A stretch of 39,461 bases of DNA. It comes from an uncultured Bacilli bacterium. Its GTDB lineage: Bacteria > Bacillota_I > Bacilli_A > RFN20 > CAG-826. Positions 16,561-34,312 of the stretch are shown here, in pieces. The DNA is taken from the NCBI GenBank assembly GCA_905236395.1, contig CAJOPR010000022.1, forward strand, positions 1-39,461, in the 5' to 3' direction. A model generated the notes under the pieces. It saw nothing but the letters and a program-made list of their open reading frames with translations, made no database searches and was not told where the DNA came from. The first letter of the stretch is position 1; each line of letters begins with the position of its first letter. A program made the translations under genes and the position numbers.

Positions 16561-18966
16561 ATGTTTGAAAACAAAGCAGAATTTAAAAAAGCTTTTACCG
16601 AGCGCATGTTAGAGCGTTACGGCGTTTCTATTAAGGACAGCCATATCTCTGAGAGATATGCTATCTTAGGAGAAATGGTCAGAGACTACGCGAACGTGGA
16701 CTGGGGCAATACCAGAAATAAATCCATTAAACGTGACCAAAAGACTCTTATCTATTTCTCTATGGAATTCTTAATTGGTCGTTTACTCGTTAATAATATG
16801 CAAAATATGGGTATTTACGAAGTCGCTAAGGAAGGCCTTAAAGACTTAGGCATCAATATCCACGAATTAGAAGAACAAGAAAGTGATGCTGGTTTAGGTA
16901 ATGGTGGTTTAGGTAGACTCGCCGCTTGTTTCTTAGATAGCATCGCTTCATTAGGTTACTTAGGACATGGTAACTGTATCCGTTACCAATATGGTTTCTT
17001 TAGACAAAGAATCATTGATGGAAAACAAAAAGAGTTCCCAGATCAATGGTTAACAAACGGAAACGTTTGGGAAATCAGACGTCCCAAGTACGAAGTAGAA
17101 GTCAAATTCTATGGAAATCCTGAGACTTATTTAAAACCAGATGGTAGTTATGCGATTAGAACCGCGAATGCATTAGTCGTCCGTGCTGTTCCATACGATG
17201 TCCCAGTTGTCGGCTATCGTAACCACGTCACTAACTCTTTGAGACTTTGGTCCGCAGAACCAACCACTCACCATTTACCAAAAGACATTTCCTTTAACGA
17301 TTACCTTAGAGCGTTAGAAGAATTATGTCATGGTCTATATCCAGATGATTCCACAGAACAAGGACGTATCTTAAGACTCAGACAACAATACTTCTTAGTG
17401 TCCTCTGGTATTCAATGCACATTAAAGAGCTATTATAAGCACCATAAGACCTTAAAAGGTATTCATGAACACTACGTGTTCCAATTAAACGATACACATC
17501 CTATTTTAGCCATTCCAGAAATGATGAGAGTTATGATGGATGAATACGGCATGGGTTGGGATGAATCCTGGGAAGAAGTCAAACAATGTATGGCGTTCAC
17601 TAACCACACAGTTATGCCTGAAGCGTTAGAGAAGTGGCCAGTTAACTATGTCCAAAACTTAATCCCACGTTGTTTCATGATTATCGAAGAAATCAACCGC
17701 AGATTTAATATCCAAATGACCGCATTAGGTGTTAACGATGGTGAAAGATATGCGATGAACATCGTCAAAGATGGTCAAATCCATATGACAAACCTCGCTA
17801 TCTATACCGCCTTCTCCGTCAATGGTGTTGCGGCATTACATACAGAAATCTTAAAAGCAGTTACATTTAAAGACTTCTATAAATACATGCCTGAGAAGTT
17901 CAATAACAAGACCAATGGTGTTACCCATCGTAGATGGCTTATTAATGCTAACCCAGAATTAGCGAAATTAATCTCTTCTAAGATTGGTGAATCTTGGATT
18001 ACCAATATGGAGAAGATTAAAGGCTTTGAAAAGTACAAAGATGATAAAGAAGTCTTAAAGGCTTTAGGTAAGATTAAACTCGATAACAAGAAAGCCTTAG
18101 CTAAATACATTAAGGAGAGCTTGGATATTGATGTCAACGTGAATTCCATCTTTGATGTGCAAATTAAGCGTCTACACGCCTATAAACGTCAATTACTCAA
18201 TATCTTCCACATCATCTATCTCTACCAGAGAATGAAGAGTGATCCAAGCTTTAGAATTTATCCACGTACATTTATCTTTGGTGCGAAAGCAGCACCTAGC
18301 TATGTGTATGCGAAGAAGATTATCGAATTAATTATTGCTGTCGCAAATATCATTAATAACGATGACGATATCTCTAGATACTTAAAAGTCGTTTTCGTAG
18401 AAAATTATGGTGTCTCTTTGGCGGAATTAATCATTCCTGCAGCGGATGTCTCCGAACAAATCTCCACAGCTGGTAAAGAAGCTAGTGGTACATCCAACAT
18501 GAAACTCATGATGAATGGTGCGGTGACATTAGGCACAATGGATGGTGCGAATATTGAAATCGCTGAATGCGCTGGTGAAGAAAACGAAGTTATCTTCGGC
18601 CTCAGAAATAACGAAGTTGAAGAACTTAACCGTAATGGTTCCTATAATCCATGGGATATCTATAACGGTGATTACCGTGTTAAGAACGTTCTCGATTCCT
18701 TATTCTCTGGCGAATGGACTAACTACAAGCCAGATAAGTTCAGAATGATCTTCGATGAAATTATGAATAACCATGATAGTTATTACATTCTCAAAGACTT
18801 TGATAGTTATGTGAAAGCCCAAGAAAAAGTGGAGAAACTCTACAAAGATAAGATGGGCTGGCAACGTATGTGTTTGATGAATATCGCCAATAGTGGAAAG
18901 TTCACCAGCGATAGAACAATCAAACAATACGCCGAAGAAATCTGGCACTTACAAAAGGTTAAATAA
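16561..18966 (+). CDS. glgP: Glycogen/maltodextrin phosphorylase (GT35)
   Basis: An 801-residue pyridoxal-phosphate enzyme releasing glucose-1-phosphate from alpha-1,4-glucans. The PLP lysine is Lys648 in EASGTSNMKLMMNG, followed by the invariant LGTMDGANIEI. Substrate-site segments GLGNGGLGRLAACFLDS and NDTHP are present. The length is normal for the family. The window cannot decide between storage glycogen and imported maltodextrin as substrate; pairing with glgB suggests glycogen, while malQ upstream gives maltodextrins too. The start has a GGGAG site about 13 nt upstream. The next gene begins 2 nt after its stop. Confidence 0.96.
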   Translation: MFENKAEFKKAFTERMLERYGVSIKDSHISERYAILGEMVRDYANVDWGNTRNKSIKRDQKTLIYFSMEFLIGRLLVNNMQNMGIYEVAKEGLKDLGINIHELEEQESDAGLGNGGLGRLAACFLDSIASLGYLGHGNCIRYQYGFFRQRIIDGKQKEFPDQWLTNGNVWEIRRPKYEVEVKFYGNPETYLKPDGSYAIRTANALVVRAVPYDVPVVGYRNHVTNSLRLWSAEPTTHHLPKDISFNDYLRALEELCHGLYPDDSTEQGRILRLRQQYFLVSSGIQCTLKSYYKHHKTLKGIHEHYVFQLNDTHPILAIPEMMRVMMDEYGMGWDESWEEVKQCMAFTNHTVMPEALEKWPVNYVQNLIPRCFMIIEEINRRFNIQMTALGVNDGERYAMNIVKDGQIHMTNLAIYTAFSVNGVAALHTEILKAVTFKDFYKYMPEKFNNKTNGVTHRRWLINANPELAKLISSKIGESWITNMEKIKGFEKYKDDKEVLKALGKIKLDNKKALAKYIKESLDIDVNVNSIFDVQIKRLHAYKRQLLNIFHIIYLYQRMKSDPSFRIYPRTFIFGAKAAPSYVYAKKIIELIIAVANIINNDDDISRYLKVVFVENYGVSLAELIIPAADVSEQISTAGKEASGTSNMKLMMNGAVTLGTMDGANIEIAECAGEENEVIFGLRNNEVEELNRNGSYNPWDIYNGDYRVKNVLDSLFSGEWTNYKPDKFRMIFDEIMNNHDSYYILKDFDSYVKAQEKVEKLYKDKMGWQRMCLMNIANSGKFTSDRTIKQYAEEIWHLQKVK

Positions 18967-18968
18967 TT

Positions 18969-19463
18969 ATGGCGAAAATCGAACTTGAAGAACTATTCAA
19001 AGCGCAAGCGGAATTAGACGCCACAATAGCGAAAAACCATAACATCAGTTACGCCACCACAAGACATAGAAGAATCATGGCTTGTCTAGTGGAAATTGGC
19101 GAACTCGCTAACGCCACAAGATGTTTCAAATATTGGTCTAATAAAGGCCCAGATGCTGATGATGTTGTCCTCGCCGAATTTGCTGATGGACTACATTTCT
19201 TCCTCTCATTAGGTGTGGATATTAAAACTTCTAAAAGAAGTTATAATCTCACCAAACATATGGATAACGCGACCGACCAATTCTTAGAAGTCTATCATCG
19301 TCTAGATCAATATCGTAAAAAACAAGATGATAAGACATTCATCAAAGCGTTCCAATCATTCCTTAATTTGCTTCCATTATTAGGTTATAGATGGAAACAA
19401 TTAAGAGAGGCATATTATAAAAAACTTGGCGTCAATTATAACCGCCAAGAAACTAATTATTAA
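18969..19463 (+). CDS. MazG-like dUTPase (dUTPase_2 family)
   Basis: A 164-residue all-alpha nucleotide pyrophosphatase, most like the dimeric dUTPase family of Gram-positives and phages. The metal-binding pattern is Glu42-x-x-Glu45 (EIGELAN) and Glu70-x-x-Asp73 (EFADGLHF), with FKYWSNKGP between, which is the family hallmark. It would hydrolyse dUTP to dUMP and keep uracil out of DNA. It is joined to the phosphorylase by a TAAATAATTATG junction with no ribosome-binding site, so translation is probably coupled. Its last codons contain the minus-strand terminator of the convergent neighbour. Confidence 0.85.
   Translation: MAKIELEELFKAQAELDATIAKNHNISYATTRHRRIMACLVEIGELANATRCFKYWSNKGPDADDVVLAEFADGLHFFLSLGVDIKTSKRSYNLTKHMDNATDQFLEVYHRLDQYRKKQDDKTFIKAFQSFLNLLPLLGYRWKQLREAYYKKLGVNYNRQETNY
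19419..19449 (-). terminator. Minus-strand terminator inside the dUTPase gene
   Basis: Read on the minus strand, CTTGGCG and CGCCAAG form a perfect 7-bp stem with an 11-nt loop followed by TTTTTT. It ends transcription of the DUF523 gene but lies wholly within the last codons of the dUTPase gene. Confidence 0.8.
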
Positions 19464-19480
19464 TAGTTAGAAATAATTTA

Positions 19481-19912
19481 TTAAAGTAGGGTATCAATCT
19501 CGTCTTCTGAAAGGACAGTGATACCTTTTATTTTTAAGAGTTCTGCAGTAACTCCCATACCATCTTTTAACTTGTGAGAGAAGGTTCCATCGTAGATTTT
19601 ATGTGTGCCACAAGATGGGGAATTTTCTTTTAAGATTGCCACTTTAATTCCGAGGTATAGACAGATGTTTAAAGCGAGCTCCGCACCGGTATCAAATGCT
19701 TTCGTAACGTCTTTACCGTTATCCATTTTGATACGATCTTTGACTCTTTCACTTGGGTGTCTAGGTGAAGGTAAACCGCCTTCCATCTCAGGACAGAAGG
19801 GCACTAATTCATACTTTTCAAGTAAGAGTTTAACTTTTTCATTATAGTTGCTCTTACCATCGTATTTGGTTTTATCACCAACTAGACATGCGGAGATTAA
19901 AATCTTTTCCAT
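19481..19912 (-). CDS. DUF523 family protein
   Basis: A 143-residue cytoplasmic protein of family DUF523. Conserved features are ISACLVG with Cys9, the FCPEMEGGLPSPR segment (about 39-51) and KENSPSCG with Cys101. Such conserved Cys could bind metal or act in redox chemistry; the biochemical role is not established. The start lies 11 nt from a -10 box with no Shine-Dalgarno. It is divergent from the metallopeptidase gene and convergent with the dUTPase gene. Confidence 0.88.
   Translation of the reverse strand: MEKILISACLVGDKTKYDGKSNYNEKVKLLLEKYELVPFCPEMEGGLPSPRHPSERVKDRIKMDNGKDVTKAFDTGAELALNICLYLGIKVAILKENSPSCGTHKIYDGTFSHKLKDGMGVTAELLKIKGITVLSEDEIDTLL
19490..19535 (+). terminator. Plus-strand terminator inside the DUF523 gene
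   Basis: GGTATCA and TGATACC form a perfect 7-bp stem (22-nt loop with possible inner pairing) followed by TTTTATTTTT. It ends the glgB-glgP-dUTPase transcript and lies within the 3' coding end of the opposite-strand gene. Confidence 0.75.
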
Positions 19913-19923
19913 AAACCGTAAAT

Positions 19924-19952
19924 ATTCTATATTTCAGGACAAACTTATTCAA
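19924..19952 (-). promoter_or_regulatory. Promoter of the DUF523 gene
   Basis: On the minus strand TTGAAT (19952-19947) and TAGAAT (19929-19924) are 17 nt apart. The transcript would start about 5 nt before the ATG. The element overlaps the -35 region of the divergent promoter. Confidence 0.65.
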
Positions 19953-19964
19953 GTTATATATAAT
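19936..19964 (+). promoter_or_regulatory. Promoter of the YgjP-type peptidase gene, leaderless
   Basis: A consensus TATAAT (19959-19964) lies 17 nt after a weak AGGACA. Transcription is expected at about 19971, the A of the start codon. Confidence 0.6.
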
Positions 19965-19970
19965 TATGGC

Positions 19971-20615
19971 ATGGCAAATAATGAATTCATTTATATTTAT
20001 AAAGGAATTGAATATCCCGTTATCGTTACTCGTAAGAGAATGAGAAGTATCAGATATACCTACAAAGACGGTGTTTTTAAGGTAAGTGCACCTTATATGT
20101 TTGTCACGCAAGCCAAGATTGTACAGGGCTTAGATAAGTTCGCTGATAAGCTCATTAAAGCGGATGCGAGAAGCATAGCTTCTGGAAGCGATTTTATCTA
20201 TATCTTAGGTACACGTGTGCCCTTACAGGAATCTGGTGAGATCAAATTCACTGATGGTAGCGTTATCCAATATAAAGATCGAGCGGATCTAGATAAGAAA
20301 TTAAAGAAATGGTTTCTTCCCTACATCACAAACCGTGTGAGATATTATGAACAGGTAATGGAGATTAAAAAGCCATACAGCGTTCATGTGAGAAAGATGA
20401 CCACGAGATATGGAAGCAATTCTTCACAAACTCATTCATTATCATTCTCGATGATTTTACTCCATTATTCACGTGAAGTTATCGACTCCGTAATTGTCCA
20501 TGAACTTGCACATGACAAGGTCAGAGACCACTCAAAGAAGTTCTATGATGTAGTTTATAAATATTGCCCTGATTACAAGGCGTTACATAAGAGATTGAGA
20601 AAGGGAGAATTCTAA
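19971..20615 (+). CDS. YgjP/WLM-type zinc metallopeptidase
   Basis: A 214-residue protein of the YgjP family (DUF45, SprT-like fold). The zinc site is HELAH (His177, Glu178, His181), with a further His187 in RDHSKKFY. Upstream are the family segments VRKMTTRYGS and ILLHYSREVIDSVIVHEL. No signal peptide is present, so it is cytoplasmic; substrates of this family are uncertain. The frame is open further upstream, but ATG 19971 (MANNEF) is preferred because it coincides with the predicted transcription start and the protein alignment begins there. The stop overlaps the next gene as TAATG. Confidence 0.85.
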   Translation: MANNEFIYIYKGIEYPVIVTRKRMRSIRYTYKDGVFKVSAPYMFVTQAKIVQGLDKFADKLIKADARSIASGSDFIYILGTRVPLQESGEIKFTDGSVIQYKDRADLDKKLKKWFLPYITNRVRYYEQVMEIKKPYSVHVRKMTTRYGSNSSQTHSLSFSMILLHYSREVIDSVIVHELAHDKVRDHSKKFYDVVYKYCPDYKALHKRLRKGEF

Positions 20616-33407: not shown

Positions 33408-34312
33408 TGGAGAAGTACATAGTAAAGGCATCTCAAAATAATATGCGATTAGACAAAGTTCTAGTCGCTTTTATGGTGGATAAATCCCGTAACTATATCT
33501 CTAAAATAATCGATGATGGTAACTGCCTTGTTAATGGTAAAGTTGCCAAAGCTTCTCTTAAAGTAAATGTAGGAGATGTTATTGAACTGGAAATTCCTGA
33601 GGACAAACCCCTTGAAGTTGCCTCTGAAGATATCCCCTTAAACATCATTTACGAAGATGAAGATATTCTCATTATTGATAAGCCACAAGGGATGGTGGTT
33701 CATCCATCTAATGGACATTGGGAGCACACCCTTGTAAATGCGATTATGGCCCATTGTAAGGACCTTAGTGGTATCAATGGTGTAATACGTCCTGGTATCG
33801 TCCATCGTATTGATAAAGATACATCTGGCTTAATTTGTGTCGCTAAAAATGATAAAGCTCATAACTTCTTAGCGGAGCAACTCAAAGATCACACAATGAG
33901 TAGAACCTATGTTGCTTTGGCAAGAGGTGTTATTAAAGAAAACCACGGCACAATCAACATGCCGATTGGTAGAGATAAACGCAATCGTCAAAAGATGGCA
34001 GTCTCTAGAGAAAATAGCAAAGAAGCTATAACTAATTTTGATGTAATCAAAAGATATTCAGAACATACACTTGTGGAATGTCATTTAGTGACTGGTAGAA
34101 CCCATCAAATTAGAGTTCACTTCTCCTATATCGGGCATCCTGTGGAAGGAGATCCTTTATATGGTGGTAGAAGCTATAAGAAACTTTATAGTGGTGGACA
34201 ATTATTAACCGCAATTAAATTGAAACTAATTCATCCAAGAACACAAAAAGAAATGGAATTTGAAACTCAAATCCCATCTTACTTCCAAAATATACTTGAT
34301 GAATTACACTAA
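33407..34312 (+). CDS. rluD: RluD-type 23S rRNA pseudouridine synthase
   Basis: A 301-residue RluA-family enzyme. An S4 RNA-binding domain (about 13-60, MRLDKVLVAFM) precedes the catalytic domain. The catalytic Asp136 is in HRIDKDTSGL; downstream are RTYVALARG and GRTHQIRVHFSYIGHP. The target uridines are likely in helix 69 of 23S rRNA or similar sites, which the sequence does not settle. It ends with a 9-bp overlap with the convergent rnhC gene. Confidence 0.92.
   Translation: MEKYIVKASQNNMRLDKVLVAFMVDKSRNYISKIIDDGNCLVNGKVAKASLKVNVGDVIELEIPEDKPLEVASEDIPLNIIYEDEDILIIDKPQGMVVHPSNGHWEHTLVNAIMAHCKDLSGINGVIRPGIVHRIDKDTSGLICVAKNDKAHNFLAEQLKDHTMSRTYVALARGVIKENHGTINMPIGRDKRNRQKMAVSRENSKEAITNFDVIKRYSEHTLVECHLVTGRTHQIRVHFSYIGHPVEGDPLYGGRSYKKLYSGGQLLTAIKLKLIHPRTQKEMEFETQIPSYFQNILDELH
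34245..34274 (-). terminator. Possible minus-strand terminator inside rluD
   Basis: On the minus strand GGATTTGA and TCAAATTCC pair (8 bp, one bulge, 3-nt loop), followed by ATTTCTTTTT. It would end the rnhC transcript but lies within rluD codons. Confidence 0.5.

What the first reader, a model, noticed from the sequence alone, without database searches (positions are those of the whole stretch)
19419..19535. Reciprocally nested terminators at the dUTPase/DUF523 junction
Each convergent gene ends at a hairpin-T-run located inside the other gene's coding sequence: minus-strand CTTGGCG/CGCCAAG-TTTTTT within dUTPase, plus-strand GGTATCA/TGATACC-TTTTATTTTT within DUF523. The codons must satisfy both protein and terminator, and the two mRNAs overlap by about 100 nt in antisense.
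Basis: seen in the sequence. Interest (0 to 1): 0.55.

Follow-up and report, generated by a model that had tools for sequence, protein, structure and literature searches.

The report
Terminators nested inside each other's genes
Two bacterial genes that run head-on into each other each appear to carry, within their own protein-coding letters, the stop signal for transcription of the other gene; this is a well-supported example of an arrangement already reported in E. coli, not a new kind of system.

Summary
Synonymous recoding rarely gives hairpins as strong (minus 4/1200, plus 16/1200).

The minus hairpin occurs in 10/19 tail-to-tail junctions without an intergenic terminator and 4/63 others; the plus hairpin in 14/19, against 0/15 junctions with an intergenic terminator and 4/17 with an interval of 200 nt or more. 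With the same peptide motif KLGxNxxRQ the minus hairpin is found in 10/12 such adjacent loci and 2/16 others. Exceptions exist: 4/19 have neither hairpin.

Such placement recurs in this genome: 16/26 gene ends at tight convergent pairs, against 160/1200 control positions. Rho was not found above cut-off in 6 of 6 genus genomes.

The kind is known: a 2007 paper counted, among 58 E. coli convergent overlaps, 19 with one and 2 with both genes using such terminators (passages). No transcript ends were measured here.

The parts
18969..19463 (+). dUTPase_2 (PF08761) gene; its last codons hold the minus-strand terminator
   Evidence: Pfam 3.1e-42
19481..19912 (-). PF04463 (2-thiouracil desulfurase; DUF523 is its older name, recalled) gene; its last codons hold the plus-strand terminator
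   Evidence: Pfam 1.5e-43
19464..19480 (.). 17-nt intergenic gap
19425..19449 (-). terminator-like stem-loop for the DUF523 transcript: 7 bp, 11-nt loop, within dUTPase codons L-G-V-N-Y-N-R-Q-E
19419..19424 (-). T6 tail of the minus-strand element, encoded by the dUTPase Lys-Lys codons AAA AAA
19490..19525 (+). terminator-like stem-loop for the dUTPase transcript: 7-bp outer stem plus 5-bp inner stem, antisense to DUF523 codons from G-I-T to D-T
19526..19535 (+). TTTTATTTTT tail of the plus-strand element, antisense to DUF523 codons of Leu-Lys-Ile-Lys

Best explanation
The two hairpin-T-run elements are intrinsic (Rho-independent) transcription terminators of the two convergent genes. Because the stop codons are only 17 nt apart, each terminator lies inside the 3' end of the other gene's coding sequence. 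RNA polymerase leaving DUF523 copies the antisense of the dUTPase tail, where the hairpin and U6 release it; polymerase leaving dUTPase does the same inside DUF523. Synonymous codon choice in each gene is thus constrained by the neighbour's need to terminate. Where an intergenic terminator or an intervening gene removes that need, the hairpin tends to be absent although the protein motif stays. Shown here by computation: structure, position, rarity under recoding, association with adjacency in relatives, double changes in the plus stem, recurrence in the genome. Inferred: that termination happens there, that the mRNA 3' ends overlap by about 110 nt, and that selection on termination is the cause.
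For: Stable hairpins with T tails facing the neighbour's transcript. Codon-recoding null: minus 4/1200, plus 16/1200; the minus stem uses CGC, 6% of Arg codons. 82 loci: minus hairpin <= -8 kcal/mol in 10/19 adjacent loci without an intergenic terminator, 2/15 adjacent with one, 1/17 with 200 nt or more between the genes, 1/31 with no DUF523 in the stretch held (Fisher 2.6e-5 for 10/19 vs 4/63, loci treated as independent); same motif KLGxNxxRQ 10/12 vs 2/16 (2.7e-4), and those 2 (L042, L115) are other hairpins. Plus hairpin 14/19 adjacent without, 0/15 with an intergenic terminator. Asymmetric retention: in L010, L039 and L041 a plus-strand ORF lies between the genes and ends 25, 19 and 10 nt from DUF523; the plus hairpin stays (-10.4, -17.0, -15.3) while the dUTPase stem is gone or weakened (none of it in L010 and L039, -6.6 in L041). 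Sister contrasts resolved on the tree: L010 vs L001/L008/L009/L011, L018+L045 vs L016, L046 (-6.6) vs L017 (-11.4), L013+L014 vs L012 go the expected way. Covariation score 0.202 vs 0.107 in shuffles (0/500 as high); cells with double change 15 vs 6.6 (0/500); no excess in the 33 control loci. Genome sample: 16/26 ends of convergent pairs with gap <12 nt have such a terminator vs 160/1200 antisense-in-CDS controls (Fisher 2.5e-8); strict tail 13/26 vs 71/1200. The exact stem pattern occurs at one place in the genome. Rho not above cut-off in 6/6 genus genomes.
Against: No transcript ends were measured. 4 of 19 adjacent loci without an intergenic terminator have neither hairpin (L023, L034, L050, L134); L021, L043, L048, L052, L110 have the plus but no minus hairpin <= -8, L016 the minus only by the criterion (one search finds another plus hairpin deeper in DUF523 in L016). 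L131 and L135 have an intergenic terminator yet also a -11.6 hairpin in dUTPase. L039 and L043 are close sisters, one with and one without an intervening gene, and both lack the minus hairpin. L042 has an intervening plus ORF running 4 nt into DUF523 but no plus hairpin. In L010 the 25-nt gap before DUF523 also holds an intergenic hairpin (-9.9 minus, -7.8 plus), so its retained plus hairpin may be redundant. In one search two measures show no excess: pairs with a change on both sides 2 vs 2.2, further pair types 8 vs 8.2; and the 18 rows of A1 were picked by hairpin energy, which inflates the paired percentage. Loci are related and the Fisher tests ignore that. The longer folds are not significant (9/200, 16/200).
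Confidence: 0.85

Rival explanations
1. The hairpins are by-products of conserved protein motifs (KKLG..N..RQ in dUTPase, KGI......ID in DUF523) and have no function.
For: The motifs give Lys AAA runs and a latent CTTG/CAAG complementarity; two g7 loci with an intergenic terminator still have such a hairpin (L131, L135).
Against: With the same KLGxNxxRQ peptide the hairpin is found in 10/12 adjacent loci and 2/16 others; recoding yields one as strong in 4/1200; L010 keeps KLGVNYNRQ but uses CTA GGT ... AGA and has lost the stem.
Confidence: 0.07
2. The hairpins are 3'-end stabilisers or processing sites: transcription really ends further on (or by collision of polymerases) and the ends are trimmed back to the hairpins.
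For: The abstract of PMC3027695 reports that most convergent transcripts examined in Rickettsia prowazekii did not end at a specific site between the genes.
Against: T tails directly follow each stem on the neighbour-facing strand; many convergent pairs of this genome have ordinary hairpin-T elements between the genes.
Confidence: 0.06
3. The roughly 110-nt antisense overlap is itself the selected feature: the two mRNAs regulate each other (excludon-like), and nested terminators are the means.
For: The overlap would be real if both terminators work; overlapping convergent 3' UTRs are part of the excludon concept in a review (PMC7154746, passages).
Against: Relatives use intergenic bidirectional hairpins instead (L013, L015, L024, L028), which should shorten the overlap (inference). 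I made no search for a functional link between the two enzymes.
Confidence: 0.05

Closest known systems
Convergent overlapping genes with Rho-independent terminators in coding sequence, E. coli (PMC2174442, 2007; passages read)
   Same: Terminators of convergent genes inside the other gene's coding sequence; the paper counts 58 convergent overlaps, 19 with one gene and 2 with both genes using such terminators.
   Different: At this locus the CDSs do not overlap (17-nt gap), and gain or loss of the stems was followed through relatives here; the passages read give counts only.
Bidirectional intrinsic terminators between convergent genes (Zymomonas study PMC7566282, passages; TransTermHP paper PMC1852404, passages)
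   Same: Hairpin-T-run elements at tail-to-tail genes; several relatives of this locus have this form.
   Different: Here two separate hairpins, each with its T tail on one strand, sit in the opposite coding sequences instead of one shared hairpin between the genes.
Excludon / overlapping 3' UTRs (PMC7154746, passages)
   Same: Convergent mRNAs whose 3' ends would be complementary.
   Different: Overlap only about 110 nt and no evidence of mutual regulation.

Membership tests
Intrinsic (Rho-independent) terminator | Hairpin with G-C pairs immediately followed by a T-rich tract on the transcribed gene's strand | tested here: met
   both elements
Intrinsic (Rho-independent) terminator | Placed shortly downstream of the stop codon of the gene it serves | tested here: met
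   stems begin 32 nt (minus) and about 26 nt (plus) after the stops
Intrinsic (Rho-independent) terminator | Stem kept by compensatory change in relatives (supporting, not strictly defining) | tested here: inconclusive
   plus stem: covariation 0.202 vs 0.107 and 15 vs 6.6 double-change cells, but pairs with a double change 2 vs 2.2 and pair types 8 vs 8.2, rows picked by hairpin energy; minus stem almost unvarying where present
Intrinsic (Rho-independent) terminator | RNA release at the T tract without Rho | not testable with these tools
   needs in vitro transcription or Term-seq
Terminators of convergent genes lying in the partner's coding sequence (broad kind) | Terminator stem lies wholly inside the opposite gene's CDS | tested here: met
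   both stems, (INSIDE_DUF, INSIDE_DUT)
E. coli convergent-overlap set as surveyed in PMC2174442 | The two coding sequences themselves overlap (the survey's criterion) | tested here: not met
   17-nt gap here, so this locus is not of that set in the strict sense, only of the broad kind; 8 of 38 other called pairs of the genome do overlap, e.g. 34304/34312 by 9 nt
Bidirectional terminator | One hairpin with T tracts for both strands | tested here: not met
   second-strand tails have 2 and 4 T of 8, under the threshold of 5
Excludon | Mutual inhibition of the two overlapping transcripts | not testable with these tools
   no expression data

The most novel reading that the evidence does not exclude
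The neighbour's need for a terminator has shaped not only synonymous codons but the amino acids themselves: in loci with the plus hairpin the DUF523 residue before the C-terminal Leu is Ser, Thr or Ala (17/18; codons TCC 8, ACC 7, GCC 1, GCG 1), while loci without it mostly have Lys, Gln or Glu (24/33; Ser/Thr/Ala 5/33) (related loci, no phylogenetic correction). In a compact lineage apparently without Rho, termination of a neighbouring gene would then be a general force on protein C-termini at tight convergent pairs.
Probability: 0.35. Interest if true: 0.5.

Novelty: new member of a known kind. Interest (0 to 1): 0.36.

Why it matters
It is a natural experiment for dual coding: gene order seems to switch a terminator requirement on and off, and the codons (perhaps residues) of the neighbouring gene follow. 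It also warns that terminator prediction limited to intergenic DNA can miss many 3' ends in compact genomes such as this one, and that synonymous sites near convergent ends may not be neutral.

Tried and rejected
The generic scan did not list either hairpin (loop limit), so a scanner was written. A first gene caller missed the dUTPase/DUF523 pair because of an over-long TTG start and was replaced. Rfam gave no match up to E 1 for 18900-20000. A dispersed repeat was rejected: the stem pattern occurs at one place in the genome. Whether the plus-strand ORFs between the genes in L010, L018, L045, L039, L041, L042, L046 are insertions or ancestral was not resolved; those of L039, L041 and L042 are weakly related to each other. 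The pair L041/L044 was dropped as a sister contrast because their fork is open in the tree. Paper searches were made; one search was too broad to help. The 2019 full-length RNA study of bidirectional terminators is recalled; it was seen only as a cited title in the search. Confidence was lowered from 0.87 to 0.85 on rechecking, for the intergenic hairpin of L010 and the dropped contrast.

Full report
What is there. The window is a 39-kb contig of a 978-kb, 78.9% complete genome; two same-genus records carry the titles Bacilli bacterium and uncultured Erysipelotrichaceae bacterium. It holds a dUTPase_2 gene (18969-19463, +) and a PF04463 gene (19481-19912, -; DUF523 is its older name, recalled), tail to tail with 17 nt between the stop codons. 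The minus-strand element begins 32 nt after the DUF523 stop and the plus-strand element about 26 nt after the dUTPase stop, ordinary distances for intrinsic terminators (general knowledge). Each passes the T-tail criterion only on the strand that faces the neighbour's transcript.

More than chance. Folding z-scores of the hairpins alone are -3.3 and -3.2; longer pieces give -2.0 and -1.5. When the ends of the two genes are recoded at random with synonymous codons weighted by the genome's usage, a minus hairpin at least as strong appears in 4/1200 and a plus one in 16/1200; with a strict T tail 0 and 4. The minus stem needs CTT (15% of Leu), GGC (24% of Gly) and CGC (6% of Arg). The exact stem pattern occurs at one place in the genome.

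Relatives. dUTPase was found in 159 of 224 family genomes; I examined 85 loci, 82 after dropping a duplicate, a truncated and a masked one. Of the 82, 19 are tail-to-tail without an intergenic hairpin, 15 tail-to-tail with one, 17 have 200 nt or more between the genes, and 31 show no DUF523 in the stretch held. The minus hairpin (<= -8 kcal/mol) is found in 10/19, 2/15, 1/17 and 1/31; the plus hairpin in 14/19, 0/15 and 4/17 (it cannot be scored in the 31). Both are present in 9/19, plus only in 5, minus only in 1, neither in 4. The single minus hits in the 17 and 31 classes (L042, L115) are different hairpins from the CTTGGCG one.

Protein against hairpin. Among loci with the peptide KLGxNxxRQ, 10/12 adjacent loci without an intergenic terminator have the minus hairpin and 2/16 others do. 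L010, of the same genus, reads FKKLGVNYNRQ but with CTA GGT and AGA, and the stem is gone; 1,272 nt with a 415-aa plus-strand ORF separate the genes there.

Asymmetry. In L010, L039 and L041 the intervening plus-strand ORF ends 25, 19 and 10 nt from DUF523. The plus hairpin inside DUF523, still useful to that ORF, is kept; the minus stem inside dUTPase is gone (L010, L039) or weak (-6.6, L041). Caveats: the gap of L010 also holds an intergenic hairpin (-9.9 minus, -7.8 plus); L046 keeps the plus hairpin, but its intervening 300-aa ORF ends 405 nt away and only a further 81-aa ORF runs into DUF523; L042 goes against, its ORF running into DUF523 without a plus hairpin. In L018 and L045 an intergenic hairpin lies before DUF523 and neither nested hairpin is present.

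Turnover on the tree. In a tree of 51 concatenated dUTPase+DUF523 proteins, L013+L014, with intergenic terminators and no nested ones, are sister to L012, which has both nested; the same direction is seen for L010 against its genus, L018+L045 against L016, and L046 against L017. L041 lies in an unresolved fork with L044 and L017+L046. L039 and L043 are uninformative. The joint of L010's sister group is weak (85/43).

Covariation. In the 18 loci with the plus hairpin the pairs at columns 9/40 and 13/36 change on both sides (AU, UA, UG, CG, GC; GC, AU). Covariation score 0.202 against 0.107 in shuffles and lower at every slide of the partner; cells with a double change 15 against 6.6; but the number of pairs with a double change (2 vs 2.2) and of pair types (8 vs 8.2) shows no excess. 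In the 33 loci without the hairpin there is no excess in score (0.072 vs 0.085). The 18 were picked by hairpin energy, which inflates the paired percentage, and relatedness alone can raise the score.

Recurrence in the genome. In 474,488 bases of the own genome 38 convergent pairs were called; 18 have gaps under 20 nt and 8 overlap. Of the 26 gene ends at pairs with gaps under 12 nt, 16 have a terminator <= -8 starting 5-75 nt downstream, against 160/1200 random antisense positions inside genes; with a strict tail 13/26 against 71/1200. A second reciprocal case lies in the window: a pseudouridine synthase (PF00849) and a ribonuclease HII-family protein with DUF3378 (PF01351, PF11858), overlapping by 9 nt at 34304-34312. 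Of the 6 genus genomes, 5 gave the second protein, and in all 5 the pair is convergent (gaps -9 to +4) with scanner-positive hairpins on both strands. Rho was not above the curated cut-off in 6/6 genus genomes, 3 of them at least 90% complete; weaker hits of 29-38 bits come as two neighbouring ORFs per genome and are probably other ATPases (inference); in the named controls 12 of 14 give a hit and 8 pass the cut-off. Without Rho each transcription unit would depend more on hairpins, which fits pressure to nest them (inference).

Known or new. A 2007 study states that Rho-independent terminators of convergent overlapping genes must lie in coding sequence and counts, in E. coli, 58 convergent overlaps, 19 with one and 2 with both genes using such terminators (PMC2174442, passages). 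The broad kind is therefore known, although this locus has a 17-nt gap and would not have been in that survey. What is added is a locus where gene order, codons and stems can be compared across relatives, and a hint that residues follow too (Ser/Thr/Ala 17/18 against 5/33). In the listings I saw no title on this gene pair; of the papers I saw one abstract and passages.

Verdict. The hairpins are probably working intrinsic terminators under selection in both genes (0.85). The arrangement is a good example of a known kind. Transcript ends remain unmeasured.

Noticed in passing
window 34304-34312: A second convergent pair (pseudouridine synthase / RNase HII-family with DUF3378) overlaps by 9 nt, with terminator-like hairpins nested in both partners; the pair with hairpins on both strands was seen in 5 of 6 genus genomes.
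   Followed up: partly
own-genome sample, 474,488 bases: Convergent pairs are very tight: 18 of 38 called pairs have gaps under 20 nt and 8 overlap.
   Followed up: partly
genus genomes G000-G005: No transcription factor Rho above the NCBIfam cut-off in 6 of 6 genomes, 3 of which are at least 90% complete.
   Followed up: partly
L039, L041, L042, L046, L029, L032 between dUTPase and DUF523: The interval holds a plus-strand ORF that begins like a lipoprotein signal peptide (Lys-rich start, hydrophobic stretch, Cys); those of L039, L041 and L042 are weakly related. It may be a site of repeated gene gain or loss.
   Followed up: partly
L018 and L045, just downstream of DUF523: The intergenic hairpin there has nearly the same stem letters (CTTGGC/GCCAAG) as the nested dUTPase hairpin of the relatives; it could be a copy of that end or chance.
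   Followed up: no
window 19453-19470: An A/T-rich inverted repeat (CTAATTA/TAGTTAG) spans the dUTPase stop codon between the two nested hairpins; no function assigned.
   Followed up: no
L140 (G004:C23:6098-7009): The match to the RNase HII-family protein in this relative is reported with one TAA inside.
   Followed up: no
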